IMG/VR virus record: IMGVR_UViG_3300029267_002354
Span: 1 to 64,000 of that record
DNA: 64,000 bases
DNA from: a virus
Strand: one strand, 5' to 3'
In this document: piece by piece, positions 30,502 to 64,000 of the stretch
Layout: every line of letters starts with the position of its first letter
How positions within the stretch are numbered: the first letter of the stretch is position 1
Position numbers and translations under genes: made by a program
Notes under the pieces: generated by a model
Seen by the model: only the letters and a program-made list of their open reading frames with translations
Databases searched by the model: none
Told to the model about the DNA's origin: nothing

Positions 30502-36176
<5,675 letters not shown>

Positions 36177-57155: not shown

Positions 57156-57228
57156 GGCTCCATGGACTAATGGTTAGGTCAGCGGCCTTTCACGTCGCTA
57201 GTGGCGGGTTCGAGTCCCCCTGGAGTCA
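57156..57228 (+). tRNA. tRNA-Glu (TTC)
   Basis: Acceptor GGCTCCA/TGGAGTC pairs with one G-T; anticodon loop CTTTCAC gives TTC. Discriminator A. No encoded CCA. Confidence 0.92.
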
Positions 57229-57232
57229 ATTT

Positions 57233-57311
57233 GGCTCCTTAGCTCAGTTGGTTTTAGAGCGCTGGCCTGTTAAGCCAGAGTGCGTGAGTTCAAGTCTCAC
57301 AGGGGCCTCCA
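57233..57311 (+). tRNA. tRNA-Asn (GTT)
   Basis: Acceptor GGCTCCT/AGGGGCC; anticodon stem CTGGC/GCCAG with loop CTGTTAA gives GTT. Encoded CCA at 57309-57311 after discriminator T. Confidence 0.9.
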
Positions 57312-57312
57312 T

Positions 57313-57385
57313 GCTGGATTAGCTCAGCAGGCAGAGCACCTCCTTCGTAACGAGGATGTCGCCGGTTCGATTCCGGCATCCAGCC
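57313..57385 (+). tRNA. tRNA-Thr (CGT)
   Basis: Acceptor GCTGGAT/ATCCAGC perfect; anticodon loop TTCGTAA gives CGT, with one C-C mismatch at the base of the anticodon stem. Confidence 0.88.
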
Positions 57386-57400
57386 ATATGAAAAAGGCAA

Positions 57401-57483
57401 GCTGGAGTCGCCTAGTGGTTGATGGCACTGGATTTGTAATCCAGAGGCGAAAGCCCGCGTCGGTTCGAATCCGGCCTCCAGCT
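57401..57483 (+). tRNA. tRNA with Thr (TGT) anticodon and class-II body
   Basis: Acceptor GCTGGAG/CTCCAGC and anticodon stem CTGGA/TCCAG are perfect; loop TTTGTAA gives TGT. The variable region is 14 bases with a GGC-GAAA-GCC hairpin and the D stem is 3 bp, the layout of Leu, Ser and Tyr tRNAs rather than Thr. Discriminator T. The identity of the charged amino acid is therefore uncertain. Confidence 0.82.
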
Positions 57484-57488
57484 CTGAC

Positions 57489-57574
57489 GGACCGATACTC
57501 AAGTGGTCAACGAGATCTGACTTTTAATCAGATGCCTTTGTGCTTCGAGGGTTCGAATCCCTCTCGGTCCTCCA
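57489..57574 (+). tRNA. tRNA with Lys (TTT) anticodon and class-II body
   Basis: Acceptor GGACCGA/TCGGTCC and anticodon stem TCTGA/TCAGA are perfect; loop CTTTTAA gives TTT. A 14-base variable region and 3-bp D stem match the architecture of the preceding tRNA. Encoded CCA at 57572-57574. The class-II body is unusual for Lys. Confidence 0.82.
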
Positions 57575-57577
57575 AAT

Positions 57578-57649
57578 GCCTCTGCGATGTGACTGGTCGC
57601 ATGCGAGATTTCCAATCTCGACGAGTCGGTTCGAGTCCGGCCAGGGGCT
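57578..57649 (+). tRNA. tRNA-Gly (TCC)
   Basis: Acceptor GCCTCTG/CAGGGGC; anticodon stem CGAGA/TCTCG; loop TTTCCAA gives TCC. Discriminator T, as usual for Gly. Confidence 0.92.
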
Positions 57650-57650
57650 C

Positions 57651-57723
57651 AGAAGCGTAGATCAATTGGTAGATCACAAGCTTTTGGTGCTTGGTGTTGT
57701 GGGTTCAAGTCCCACCGCTTCTT
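57651..57723 (+). tRNA. tRNA-Gln (TTG)
   Basis: Acceptor AGAAGCG/CGCTTCT; anticodon stem CAAGC/GCTTG; loop TTTTGGT gives TTG. Confidence 0.9.
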
Positions 57724-57729
57724 TTGAAT

Positions 57730-57802
57730 GGGGCTGTAGCTCAATTGGGAGAGCGCTTCGCTTGCACCGAAGATGTCGCAGGTTCGATTCCTGTCAGCTC
57801 CA
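57730..57802 (+). tRNA. tRNA-Ala (TGC)
   Basis: Acceptor GGGGCTG/CAGCTCC with the third base pair G-T; loop CTTGCAC gives TGC. Discriminator A. Confidence 0.92.
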
Positions 57803-57804
57803 CC

Positions 57805-57822
57805 GACGAACTTTAGTTCGTC
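57805..57822. repeat. Dispersed palindrome variant between tRNAs
   Basis: GACGAACTTTAGTTCGTC has 8-bp arms and centre TT, between the Ala and Arg tRNA genes. It is the longest-armed copy and is intergenic with no ribosome-binding site nearby. Confidence 0.9.
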
Positions 57823-57824
57823 AT

Positions 57825-57898
57825 TGATCCGTAGCTCAGTGGATAAGAGCACCTCTCTCCGGAAGAGGGTGTCGTAGGTTCGATTCCTACCGGGTCAG
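57825..57898 (+). tRNA. tRNA-Arg (CCG)
   Basis: Acceptor TGATCCG/CGGGTCA; anticodon stem CCTCT/AGAGG; loop CTCCGGA gives CCG. Starts with T1-A72. Confidence 0.88.
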
Positions 57899-57903
57899 AA
57901 AAC

Positions 57904-57979
57904 GCCCCTGTAGGCTAGTGGATAAAACCGCAGCGCTACGGACGCTGAATCGCTGGTTCGAGTCCAGCCGGGGGTGCCA
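57904..57979 (+). tRNA. tRNA-Arg (ACG)
   Basis: Acceptor GCCCCTG/CGGGGGT; anticodon stem CAGCG/CGCTG; loop CTACGGA gives ACG, which reads CGT after deamination to inosine. Encoded CCA at 57977-57979. Confidence 0.9.
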
Positions 57980-57980
57980 G

Positions 57981-58051
57981 CGGGCCATAGCTCGAAGGTC
58001 GAGCGCCGTTCTCATAAATCGGTGGTGAAGGTTCGATTCCTTCTGGCCTGA
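57981..58051 (+). tRNA. tRNA with CAT anticodon (Met or Ile2)
   Basis: Acceptor CGGGCCA/TGGCCTG; loop CTCATAA gives CAT; one T-T mismatch in the anticodon stem. Initiator, elongator Met and lysidine-modified Ile cannot be told apart by eye. Confidence 0.85.
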
Positions 58052-58056
58052 AACAT

Positions 58057-58129
58057 CGGGGCATAGCTCAGCTGGGAGAGCGGGGGCCTTACAAGCCTCA
58101 GGTCGCAGGTTCGATCCCTGCTGCCCTGA
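58057..58129 (+). tRNA. tRNA-Val (TAC)
   Basis: Acceptor CGGGGCA/TGCCCTG; loop CTTACAA gives TAC; T arm GCAGG/CCTGC perfect. Confidence 0.9.
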
Positions 58130-58136
58130 CTGTTTT

Positions 58137-58160
58137 CCTGGATTCGTCCAGGTGGGTTTT
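58137..58160 (+). terminator. Hairpin after the first tRNA group
   Basis: CCTGGA-TTCG-TCCAGG is a perfect 6-bp stem with a stable TTCG tetraloop, followed by TGGGTTTT. This fits a modest intrinsic terminator or an RNA processing signal for the tRNA transcript. Confidence 0.65.
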
Positions 58161-58165
58161 CTGGC

Positions 58166-58194
58166 TTGACACGATTTGTGGCTATGGTAGCTCT
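58166..58194 (+). promoter_or_regulatory. Possible promoter of the gene within the tRNA cluster
   Basis: TTGACACG at 58166-58173 repeats the -35 context of the 56913 promoter. The -10 region is unclear (TATGGT is only 11 bases away), so the call is weak. It would serve the gene at 58249 and perhaps the second tRNA group. Confidence 0.35.
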
Positions 58195-58248
58195 TGATGC
58201 AGAGAGACAGGCATCGAGGCACGTGTTGAGAGAGAAAAGGAGATAGTT

Positions 58249-58587
58249 ATGATTTTGAAAATAAAACAGCAGAGTCAGGAAGATGGTGTGTCGGATCGCT
58301 GGTGGGTCCTCGGTGAGATTGCCAAGGTCAGCTATGCGATGGAGCCGATGGAGGGTTTCTACGTCGGCAACGAGAAGGATCCAAAGACAGACAAACTGCA
58401 TGCAGACATTGTTCTGGTTAATCCCATGGCGTCAGTCAAGGATGACGAACTTCAAACGGTTCCTGTTAATCGGATCGTTGCCAGGGATATTCGTGACAAG
58501 GAAACGGTGATTCTCTTCAATACGGTTGCATATTTGTGCAACGATCGTGGAGAGACCATAGAGAAGATCGTCGGAAATCACTGGTAG
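58249..58587 (+). CDS. Hypothetical protein between the tRNA groups
   Basis: AAAAGGAGA precedes the ATG. The 112-residue product is strand-rich (DRWWVLGEIAKVSYAMEPM, ETVILFNTVAYLCND) with an acidic, helical middle. No family is recognised. It interrupts the tRNA array and has its own possible promoter. A T-rich stretch (TCTCTTTTTTT) follows, without a clear stem. Confidence 0.6.
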   Translation: MILKIKQQSQEDGVSDRWWVLGEIAKVSYAMEPMEGFYVGNEKDPKTDKLHADIVLVNPMASVKDDELQTVPVNRIVARDIRDKETVILFNTVAYLCNDRGETIEKIVGNHW

Positions 58588-58635
58588 GTAGCAGCCTTCT
58601 GTCTGTCTCTCTTTTTTTGTAATCGGTAAGTGTTT

Positions 58636-58709
58636 CCGGGATTAGTTCAGCCTGGAGGAACGCTCGCTTTGGGAGCGAGAGGTCGCAGGTTCAAATCCTG
58701 CATCCCGGA
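58636..58709 (+). tRNA. tRNA-Pro (TGG)
   Basis: Acceptor CCGGGAT/ATCCCGG; anticodon stem CTCGC/GCGAG; loop TTTGGGA gives TGG. C1-G72 and A73 are typical of Pro. Confidence 0.92.
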
Positions 58710-58720
58710 CTGTTTGAGAT

Positions 58721-58794
58721 GGTGCATTCGCGTAGTGGTCTATCGCACCGGCCTGTCACGTCGGAATTCACGGGTTCGAATCCCGTATGCACCG
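58721..58794 (+). tRNA. tRNA-Asp (GTC)
   Basis: Acceptor GGTGCAT/ATGCACC perfect; anticodon loop CTGTCAC gives GTC; discriminator G, as expected for Asp. Confidence 0.92.
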
Positions 58795-58795
58795 C

Positions 58796-58868
58796 CGAGG
58801 AGTAGAGCATTGGATGACTCGCTTGCTTCGGGAGCAAGACCAAGCTGGTTCGATTCCAGTCTCCTCGA
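58796..58868 (+). tRNA. tRNA-Pro (CGG)
   Basis: Acceptor CGAGGAG/CTCCTCG; anticodon stem CTTGC/GCAAG; loop TTCGGGA gives CGG. Confidence 0.9.
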
Positions 58869-58871
58869 AAC

Positions 58872-58944
58872 GGATCCGTAGGCTAGTGGATGAAACCGGT
58901 CGGCTTCTACCCGACTCTCCCCCGTTCGAATCGGGGCGGATCCT
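58872..58944 (+). tRNA. tRNA-Arg (TCT)
   Basis: Acceptor GGATCCG/CGGATCC perfect; anticodon stem GTCGG/CCGAC; loop CTTCTAC gives TCT. Confidence 0.92.
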
Positions 58945-58948
58945 CTCT

Positions 58949-59022
58949 CCCAGGATGGCCAAGTCTGGTAAGGCACGCCTCTCATACGGGCGGTATCGCA
59001 GGTTCAAATCCTGCTCCTGGGA
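58949..59022 (+). tRNA. tRNA with CAT anticodon (Met or Ile2)
   Basis: Acceptor CCCAGGA/TCCTGGG perfect; anticodon stem CGCCT/GGGCG with one T-G; loop CTCATAC gives CAT. This is the second CAT tRNA of the cluster, so one of the two may be Ile2 or elongator Met. Confidence 0.88.
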
Positions 59023-59027
59023 CTGAT

Positions 59028-59101
59028 TGCCTCGTAGCTCAGGGGACAAGAGCAGAGGATTCCTAATCCTCGTGTCGGCGGTTCGATTCCGTCCGGGGCA
59101 G
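59028..59101 (+). tRNA. tRNA-Arg (CCT)
   Basis: Acceptor TGCCTCG/CGGGGCA; anticodon stem GAGGA/TCCTC; loop TTCCTAA gives CCT. It is the last tRNA and lies 10 bp from the end of the convergent gene. Confidence 0.9.
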
Positions 59102-59111
59102 CAAGCGGGGA

Positions 59112-62648: not shown

Positions 62649-62677
62649 ACATTAAGCCGGTTTTTAAGGTTTGTCAA
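62649..62677 (-). promoter_or_regulatory. sigma70-type promoter of the minus-strand operon
   Basis: Reading the minus strand, TTGACA (62677-62672) and TAATGT (62654-62649) are 17 bases apart. It is the best promoter for genes from 62603 down to 59112. The 37-bp repeat array begins just upstream of it. Confidence 0.8.
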
Positions 62678-62718
62678 CAAAAGATTCGAAGAAAAGTGCG
62701 GCTTCATAAGCGTTTGAG

Positions 62719-63830
62719 ATGTTTGCGTTTACGTGGAATGTTTCTGTTTCCTGATATGGCTTCGATCAGAAAAAATGTTTCATTCGTTCCATATGGTTGC
62801 TCGTTGTCCCTTGTGTTTCCGTTTTCCTAGATGGATCTCGGTCGTGATTAATGCTTCCGTCTGCCGTTCTGCCTGCGATTCACATGGTTGTTTCGCTCCT
62901 GCACTGTGTCTGCTCTGACTCCTTTTGGTTCATTTCAGCATGATGGATACGATCGAGAGTCTTGCTTCTGTCGGTCAACTCGTCTCACCTTCCATTATTC
63001 TGGTTCATTAATGCCACCTGGGTGCGCTCCAGTTTTGTGGTTCTCTTTCCGGAAATGGCTTCGATCGAGAGATATGGTTCCGTCGCTGTGGTTGGCTTCG
63101 TTTCAGCGTTATGGTTCCATTGCCACGCCTGACTACTCTTCATCCTTTGGGATCCGTCACGTCGATTGGATTCACTCTCAACACTTGCTTCCGTCATTCG
63201 TCATGGCTCCGATCCGCGCAACTGTTTCTATCTGGCCTTCTGTCTTCGAATGAGCGGTTTGACTCCATCGATTTTACTGTCTTCGATCGCACACCATGTT
63301 TTTGTCGTGAGTGTTGGCTTCGATTCGTTGTGTTGATTCTCTCTGGATCCATGTCTTCGTTTTGATCACTTGGTTCCGTCTAATATCATGGCTGGTTCTG
63401 AAACCATGCTTCTGTCCGGGTACATGTCTTCGATCGGGTGACTTGGTTCTTTCTGTTTTTATGTCTTCGATCTCCGAGTGTGGTTCGGTCTTGGAAGATG
63501 TCTTCGATCAACCCACTTGTTTCATTTCCACAAGATGTCTTCGATCAGAGATCGTGTTTTTGTCGTGGATGATGTCTTCGATCACGAGCTTTGGTTCTTT
63601 TACGCAGACTGTCTTCGAATCTTCTACTTGGTTCGTTCAAGCAGCGTGTCTTCGATCGTATTCTTTGTTTCTGTCGTCGAAAGTGTCTTCGATCATGAGC
63701 AGTGGTTCTTTTACCTAGACTGTCTTCGTTCGGGCATCGTGTTTCCGTCAGGAAGATTGTCTTCGATCACCGAGCATGTTTCAGTTGTTTCCCGTGTCTG
63801 GTTTTCAAAGAGCAATGCGAACTTGAGTTC
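62719..63830 (+). repeat. 37-bp degenerate tandem repeat array, about 30 units
   Basis: Twenty-nine full units and a partial one start at 62719, 62756, 62793 and so on to 63794. From 62981 to 63388 and from 63424 to 63794 every interval is exactly 37. Each unit has a core TGTCTTCGATC (or TGGCTTCGATC), 7 variable bases, a second core about TGGTTCTTTC or TGTTTCTGTC, then variable bases. No gene fits: 37 is not a multiple of 3. Most units contain GATC. It fills about 1.1 kb upstream of the minus-strand promoter; the nature is unknown. Confidence 0.9.
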
Positions 63831-63831
63831 G
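63818..63831. repeat. Dispersed palindrome copy 15 (CGAACTTGAGTTCG)
   Basis: Immediately downstream of the minus-strand gene end at 63836, at the edge of the 37-bp array. Confidence 0.9.
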
Positions 63832-63835
63832 TTTT

Positions 63836-64000
63836 CTAGACCTCGCCGTAGAGGTGCCGGAGGCTTTTTCCGTCGGTCTCGACCTCGGGCGGCGCGATGT
63901 AGTGGGAGTGTTCTCCTTCGCAGTGCTTCGAGAAAGCGAACGGTACCGGGGGTGCCTCACCGTAGTAGTCCCGGTACATGACGTCGTGGAGGTGGCTCAG
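63836..64000 (-). CDS. C-terminal part of a hypothetical protein (truncated at the window edge)
   Basis: The minus strand is open from the right edge to TAG at 63836-63838, giving 54 residues with HDVMYRDYYGEAPPV, CEGEHSHYIAPPE and a final HLYGEV. The codon use fits coding DNA and the sequence has no stops in frame. No family can be named from so little. Confidence 0.6.
   Translation of the reverse strand: MSHLHDVMYRDYYGEAPPVPFAFSKHCEGEHSHYIAPPEVETDGKSLRHLYGEV

What the first reader, a model, noticed from the sequence alone, without database searches (positions are those of the whole stretch)
62719..63830. Non-coding array of about 30 degenerate 37-bp tandem repeats upstream of a promoter
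Unit starts recur at exactly 37 bases across long runs (for example 63424, 63461, 63498, 63535, 63572, 63609, 63646, 63683, 63720, 63757, 63794). Each unit keeps two short cores, TGTCTTCGATC and about TGGTTCTTTC, at fixed distance, separated by variable segments. That two-core plus spacer layout over 1.1 kb, not in frame with any protein, suggests a protein-binding array: a replication origin with iterons, a packaging or segregation site, an enhancer-like element, or a transcribed array of small RNAs. GATC occurs in most units. I know of no described phage element of this kind, but that is a limit of memory.
Basis: partly seen in the sequence, partly recalled or inferred. Interest (0 to 1): 0.88.

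Follow-up and report, generated by a model that had tools for sequence, protein, structure and literature searches.

The report
TIGR guide-RNA array beside TasA gene
The repeat array in this phage is a store of about 29 small two-part guide RNAs of the recently described TIGR-Tas kind, lying right behind the gene for its RNA-binding partner protein; it is a new member of a known but poorly understood RNA-guided DNA-targeting family.

Summary
In detail: 62,720-63,805 holds 29 full units of 37 bp plus a truncated end. Model score is 603, against at most 38 in shuffled DNA. Read on the MINUS strand, each unit is edge repeat GATCGAAGACA, 8-nt spacer, loop repeat GANNGAACCA, 8-nt spacer. Spacer columns carry almost no information.

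The gene ending about 30 bp from the array on the same strand (stop at window 63,836, running off the window to 65,005) encodes a 389-aa Nop-domain protein. A profile of its family matches solved TasR (E 5e-43), TasH (2e-22) and, weakly, IS110 transposases. Its AlphaFold model retrieves only Tas structures at E<=0.001. It has no RuvC or HNH domain, so it is a TasA.

Of 22 viral homologues, 19 have a 35-37-bp dual-repeat array downstream on the same strand, mostly with GA..GA..C(A/G) repeats and about 8-nt spacers.

So this is a TIGR-Tas (TasA) locus (PMC12045711), not an origin, packaging site or protein-binding array. Guide processing and target binding are inferred. Targets are unknown: spacers match the phage's own 81-kb record no better than chance. 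Notable: its length (29 units; most are 5-15), edge repeats that drift away from tas while putative box positions stay fixed, and a Cys-containing TasA insertion.

The parts
62720..63805 (-). TIGR dual-repeat array: 29 full units of 37 bp (edge GATCGAAGACA 11 nt, spacer A 8 nt, loop GANNGAACCA 10 nt, spacer B 8 nt, minus-strand reading), bounded by divergent or truncated edge-type repeats at 63,805-63,795 (AAAACCAGACA) and 62,730-62,720 (AAACGCAAACA)
   Evidence: strand from relatives
63836..64000 (-). 3' end of the tasA gene (389 aa; whole gene window 63,836-65,005 = L003:2824-3993, beyond the window), stop codon TAG at 63,838-63,836; Nop-domain protein without nuclease
63818..63831 (.). Palindrome CGAACTTGAGTTCG between tas stop and array; one of 14 copies in the 81-kb genome, so a genome-wide element and not specific to the array
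62649..62677 (-). Promoter-like TTGACA-17-TAATGT just beyond the distal end of the array, for the next minus-strand gene (62,603-62,343); the TTGACAAACC box also lies upstream of tasA (L003:4071-4062) and of another minus-strand unit (L003:5544-5535)
   Evidence: By eye; TTGACAAACC matches; promoter activity inferred

Best explanation
The array and the gene next to it are a TIGR-Tas system with a nuclease-free effector (TasA). Most likely tasA and the array are transcribed together on the minus strand. The transcript is cut within the edge repeats into about 29 guide RNAs of roughly 36-37 nt, each carrying two 8-nt spacers flanked by box C/box D-like motifs. A TasA dimer binds one guide, one subunit on the edge repeat and one on the loop repeat, and binds double-stranded DNA whose two strands pair with spacers A and B. 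Having no nuclease, it would block or bend the target rather than cut it, for instance silencing a competing element or host genes. SHOWN here: anatomy, homology, fold, absence of a nuclease domain, conservation of gene plus array and of strand across relatives. INFERRED from the experimentally studied relatives: transcription, processing, dimer binding, DNA targeting. UNKNOWN: the targets and the benefit to the phage.
For: Array anatomy fits the published definition (two alternating 8-12-nt repeats interspaced by about 9-nt spacers, up to 12): 11- and 10-nt repeats, 8-nt spacers, spacer columns at most 0.24 bit against 1.4-2.0 bits at fixed core positions. Both repeats share one skeleton RA..GAA..CA, as expected for a symmetric dimer. 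The adjacent protein: PHROG 4285 at 1e-31; family profile hits only Tas and IS110 in the PDB (TasR 4.9e-43, TasH 1.6e-22, IS621 5.8e-6); AlphaFold model pLDDT 75.9 retrieves Tas chains at ranks 1-11, then IS110 recombinases. Homology to TasR starts after its RuvC domain. 19 of 22 viral homologues and one genome-contig homologue (both sides) have 35-37-bp dual-repeat arrays beside tas, with closely similar repeats (e.g. GAGCGAACCA/GAGAGATCCA).
Against: No transcript, processing or binding data exist for this locus. The published 3' rho-independent terminator was not found on the minus strand past the array. Edge repeats of the distal half are degenerate. The repeats carry GA where the TasR structure shows UG. 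No target was found for any spacer pair in the phage's own record.
Confidence: 0.93

Rival explanations
1. It is a TIGR array, but the guides are read from the plus strand, convergent with tasA.
For: On the plus strand both repeats begin with TG, like the published UG box, and a palindrome followed by TTTT lies at that end.
Against: Relatives' arrays lie downstream on the tas strand with repeats ending in CA or CG and GA near the start; the minus strand here has that form, the plus strand does not. The palindrome recurs 14 times in the genome, mostly between a stop codon and the next start, so it is not a dedicated array terminator.
Confidence: 0.04
2. A DNA element: iterons of a replication origin, a segregation (parS-like) site or a packaging site bound by a phage protein at the repeated cores.
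For: Regular spacing near 3.5 helical turns, two cores per unit, non-coding. ParB-like genes occur with some TasA loci according to PMC12045711.
Against: The neighbouring protein is an RNA-guided effector of the Tas family and nearly all its viral homologues carry a like array whose repeat sequence differs between loci. Pfam searches of ten genes around the array, which include tasA, showed no ParB or replication initiator. Pure protein-binding arrays do not predict the two hypervariable 8-nt slots of fixed length.
Confidence: 0.02
3. A relic: an IS110-type transposase remnant beside a decaying repeat array, no longer active.
For: PHROG 4285 is labelled transposase; distal edge repeats are degenerate.
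Against: The gene is a full-length open frame with conserved motifs; even in the distal half the putative box positions stay at 0.86-1.00, which points to continued selection. There is no DEDD catalytic domain, and the profile is far closer to Tas than to IS110.
Confidence: 0.04

Closest known systems
TIGR-Tas dual-repeat systems with TasA (Faure et al. 2025, PMC12045711; e.g. the Flavonifractor plautii FpTIGR locus)
   Same: Solo Nop-domain protein beside a non-coding array of two alternating short repeats with two short spacers per unit; unit length 35-37; array begins and ends with incomplete edge-type repeats; shared end motifs in both repeats.
   Different: 29 units where most arrays have 5-15; GA and NCA-type ends instead of UG/CCA; no terminator found past the array; 8-nt spacers (as in the TasH array of Salicola phage CGphi29); Cys-containing insertion of about 85 residues in TasA; edge repeats drift with distance from tas.
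TIGR stem-loop arrays (second array type of the same paper; likely in Gordonia phage Morrissey and Mycobacterium phage Euphoria here)
   Same: Homologous TasA-like protein (24-28% identity in alignment A1) next to a non-coding stretch.
   Different: Palindromic stems with variable loops, no alternating fixed repeats (by eye).
IS110-family transposases with bridge RNA (IS621, ISCro4)
   Same: Nop-like RNA-binding domain, weak sequence and fold match.
   Different: No DEDD RuvC domain, an array instead of a single bridge RNA.
CRISPR arrays
   Same: Works like one in storing many variable guides between repeats.
   Different: Two alternating 10-11-nt repeats, 8-nt spacers, a Nop-domain protein in place of a Cas effector, no Cas protein recognised nearby.

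Membership tests
TIGR-Tas (dual-repeat type) | Nop-domain Tas protein encoded beside the array | tested here: met
   Profile to TasR 4.9e-43 and TasH 1.6e-22; fold search ranks 1-11 are Tas; gene ends about 30 bp from the array
TIGR-Tas (dual-repeat type) | Two distinct alternating 8-12-nt repeats with two spacers of about 9 nt (up to 12; 8 in SpTIGR) | tested here: met
   Edge 11 nt, loop 10 nt, spacers 8 nt in 28/29 (A) and 26/29 (B) units
TIGR-Tas (dual-repeat type) | End motifs (box C, box D) covary between edge and loop repeat | tested here: met
   Shared skeleton RA..GAA..CA; xA..CA in 23/29 edges and 28/29 loops
[quoted passage not shown]
   Both ends carry divergent edge-type repeats (AAAACCAGACA; AAACGCAAACA), but truncation cannot be told from drift
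TIGR-Tas (dual-repeat type) | Predicted rho-independent terminator after the array ('typically') | tested here: not met
   None found on the minus strand past 62,720. The paper calls this typical, not defining
TIGR-Tas (dual-repeat type) | Array processed to about 36-nt guides bound by Tas | not testable with these tools
   Needs small-RNA sequencing
TIGR-Tas (dual-repeat type) | Spacers A and B direct binding to opposite strands of a DNA target | not testable with these tools
   No target known; no better-than-chance match in the own record
TasR / TasH | N-terminal RuvC or HNH nuclease domain | tested here: not met
   Homology starts at TasR residue 121; no Pfam nuclease match; the first about 25 residues are low confidence. 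Hence TasA
IS110 transposase | DEDD RuvC-like catalytic domain | tested here: not met
   Absent from the sequence ahead of the Nop region
CRISPR-Cas | Cas protein and one repeat type of about 25-36 nt | tested here: not met
   No Cas protein among the PADLOC- and Pfam-searched neighbours; two short alternating repeats
Iteron origin / partition site | Cognate initiator or ParB gene next to the repeats | tested here: not met
   Pfam shows no initiator or ParB among the ten genes searched around the array; others not searched

The most novel reading that the evidence does not exclude
The graded divergence of edge repeats away from tas, with putative box positions kept fixed, records polar growth or polar homogenisation of the array: units near tas are the youngest, made by a mechanism not yet known for TIGR arrays, and all units stay in use as guides.
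Probability: 0.2. Interest if true: 0.65.

Novelty: new member of a known kind. Interest (0 to 1): 0.42.

Why it matters
How TIGR arrays arise and grow, and what nuclease-free TasA proteins do, are stated as open in the founding paper. This locus adds a long array with a measurable gradient of repeat divergence. The related set gathered here (22 viral loci, 19 with a downstream array) shows that phage proteins filed as 'transposase' (PHROG 4285) include TasA proteins with guide arrays, so targets, growth and turnover can be studied by comparison.

Tried and rejected
(a) Plus-strand reading of the array with a terminator at 63,818-63,835: first favoured, dropped after comparison with relatives and after finding 14 copies of the palindrome. 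(b) Three-unit (111-bp) tandem duplication suggested by TRF: spacers alone do not support it (best pair 11/16, P 0.14 against column shuffles). (c) Self-targets: 29 spacer pairs against the 81-kb record, two geometries, gaps 0-2; no better than re-paired spacers. (d) Cross-targets among related loci: one exact 16/16 match, L034 unit 6 to the tas gene of L022, but no general enrichment in tas genes, and of 14 exact occurrences in viral contigs only that one lies in a tas gene, so chance is likely. (e) Rfam: no match. (f) Nucleotide search of phage records: no match. (g) Exact-core pattern in viral contigs: one hit, inside a coding region, chance. (h) Single-sequence AlphaFold failed (pLDDT 35); the run with 23 aligned sequences was usable. 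(i) Relatives sought with the small gene beyond the array and with P0001 alone: none found; an alignment was needed.

Full report
OBSERVATION. The window is the first 64,000 bases of an 81,012-bp virus record that encodes a tail sheath, a terminase and baseplate proteins, i.e. a contractile-tailed phage. The finding is right. Autocorrelation of 62,653-63,834 has its maximum at 37 (0.476 against a mean of 0.276), with harmonics at 74 and 111. A segmentation with two alternating motifs gives 30 edge and 29 loop repeats from 62,720 to 63,805. Its score is 603, while 40 dinucleotide shuffles reached at most 38. A 32-42-bp periodicity detector fires nowhere else in the window, and the array occurs once in the record. 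A few 1-2-bp indels occur, mostly in the left half; the phase is otherwise kept.

ANATOMY. On the minus strand each unit reads GATCGAAGACA (edge, 11 nt), 8 nt, GANNGAACCA (loop, 10 nt), 8 nt. Spacer columns carry at most 0.24 bit over all units, while the fixed positions of the edge (G5, A7, C10, A11) and loop (A2, G5, A6, A7, C9, A10) carry 1.4-2.0 bits. Spacer lengths are 8 in 28/29 (A) and 26/29 (B) units. Both repeats share the skeleton RA..GAA..CA; the edge has one base more.

THE GENE. The gene on the minus strand whose stop codon is at window 63,836-63,838 runs off the window (L003:2824-3993, 389 aa, P0001). It ends about 30 bp from the array. A GGAG ribosome-binding site precedes its start, and TTGACAAACC lies further upstream, a box that also precedes two other minus-strand units (promoter role inferred). 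PHROG 4285 'transposase' matches at 1e-31. The best PDB sequence match is 9MTY at E 0.0099 in three collinear pieces; 9MTY is the TasR structure of the TIGR-Tas paper. With one homologue added, the profile matches 9MTY alone at 4.6e-15. With 23 members it matches TasR 4.9e-43, TasH 1.6e-22, IS621 5.8e-6 and ISCro4 2.6e-5. The AlphaFold model from that alignment (pLDDT 75.9, pTM 0.73) retrieves Tas chains at ranks 1-11 and IS110 recombinases after them. Homology begins at TasR residue 121, after its RuvC domain, and no nuclease domain is seen in Pfam. P0001 is therefore a TasA. Between its two conserved halves it has an extra region (about residues 131-217) with four cysteines, of low confidence in the model; two relatives (L022, L023) also carry Cys-containing insertions there.

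RELATIVES. A search of genome contigs gave one homologue of 40% identity (L021), with 36-bp dual-repeat arrays on both sides. A search of viral contigs with the pair gave 22 loci. In 19 of the 22 an array of period 35-37 lies downstream of tas, in most within a few tens to hundreds of bases, in L022 about 1.5 kb away. The exceptions are L030 (weak periodicity upstream only), L037 (none convincing) and L042, whose contig ends inside tas. Read in the tas direction most repeats have the form GANNGANNC(A/G), e.g. GAGCGAACCA/GAGAGATCCA in L032-L034 and L038-L041, GAGAGAACCG/GAGCGAGCCG in L028, L035 and L036, and TGAGAAACCA/TGCGAGCCA in L043; spacers have a median of 7-9 nt, mostly 8. This puts the guide strand of the window's array on the minus strand, the same as tas. 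The re-trained score for the opposite strand is not orientation evidence, because the model can relearn the reverse complement; the repeat form is. More distant homologues in Gordonia phage Morrissey and Mycobacterium phage Euphoria have palindromic, stem-loop-like gaps upstream of the gene (by eye), resembling the second array type of the paper.

MECHANISM. The published work (PMC12045711) shows that such arrays are transcribed and cut in the middle of edge repeats into 36-nt tigRNAs bound by TasA, TasR and TasH, that for TasR and TasH the two spacers pair with opposite strands of one DNA target, and that a TasR dimer reads edge and loop repeats in the same way. The present locus has the sequence features needed for that path, so it is inferred here: tas-array transcript, about 29 guides, TasA dimers, double-stranded DNA binding without cutting. 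What the phage gains is unknown. Spacer pairs have no better-than-chance match in the phage's own record, so regulation of the held 81 kb is not supported; the record may be incomplete. Cross-matching 262 spacer pairs from 18 arrays to the related loci gave one exact match in the published geometry, to a conserved stretch (KLFLSH) of another virus's tas gene. The same 16-mer occurs in 13 other viral contigs outside tas genes, so this is most likely chance.

VARIATION. Edge repeats diverge from their consensus with distance from tas (rho 0.55, p 0.002); loop repeats do not. In the distal half the edge positions A2, G5, A7, C10 and A11 stay at 0.86-1.00, while positions 3, 4, 6, 8 and 9 drift. 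This suggests that distal units are still selected for binding and that tas-proximal units are younger or homogenised. It is one array, so it is a lead only. Arrays of L035 and L036, with identical tas proteins, share their first four units and their last unit nearly exactly but differ in length (16 and 7 full units), which shows internal gain or loss.

LIMITS. Everything about RNA production, processing and binding here is inference by homology. The transcription terminator that the paper calls typical was not found. The 81-kb record may be a fragment, and the host is unknown.

VERDICT. Real, well explained, a new member of a known and recent kind. Confidence in the identification is high; DNA targeting by this very protein rests on homology.

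Noticed in passing
window 2478, 5935, 11029, 12411, 21141, 29036, 37977, 41575, 48046, 56523, 62084, 63819; L003:6939, 12733: A palindrome GAACTYRAGTTC (mostly extended to RCGAACTYRAGTTCGY) occurs 12 times in the window (0.01 expected) and twice more in the rest of the record, mostly between a stop codon and the next ribosome-binding site; its role (hairpin in mRNA, or a protein-binding site) is unknown.
   Followed up: partly
L035 and L036 arrays: Two viral loci with identical tas proteins have TIGR arrays that share their first four units and nearly their last but differ internally (16 against 7 full units): direct evidence of internal gain or loss of units.
   Followed up: no
L038 and L041 arrays: Arrays of related viruses contain spacer pairs that differ by one base (e.g. 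CCAGACAA...CTTAATGT and CCAGACAA...TTTAATGT; CGAGTTCC and CGAGTTCT, each with GGCTGTAT), which suggests shared ancestry of units with point changes, perhaps following a target.
   Followed up: no
L034 array unit 6; L022:4790-4805: Spacer pair AAATTGTT/GGGACAAG matches 16/16, in the published geometry, the conserved KLFLSH stretch of another virus's tas gene; a collection-wide check makes chance likely.
   Followed up: yes
L004 (Gordonia phage Morrissey) and L005 (Mycobacterium phage Euphoria): Genes labelled hypothetical protein or transposase are TasA-like and sit beside palindromic non-coding gaps that look like stem-loop TIGR arrays; about 75 mycobacteriophage records carry the gene.
   Followed up: partly
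window 57156-59102: A cluster of 18 tRNA genes on the plus strand.
   Followed up: no
window 30879-36176: A 1,765-residue open frame made largely of collagen-like G-x-T triplets, with many 9-bp-multiple tandem repeats.
   Followed up: no
L003:4399-4854 (minus strand): Protein with a cyclic-phosphate processing receiver domain (cREC_REC, PF20274, E 1.2e-20), a short distance upstream of tasA on the same strand.
   Followed up: no
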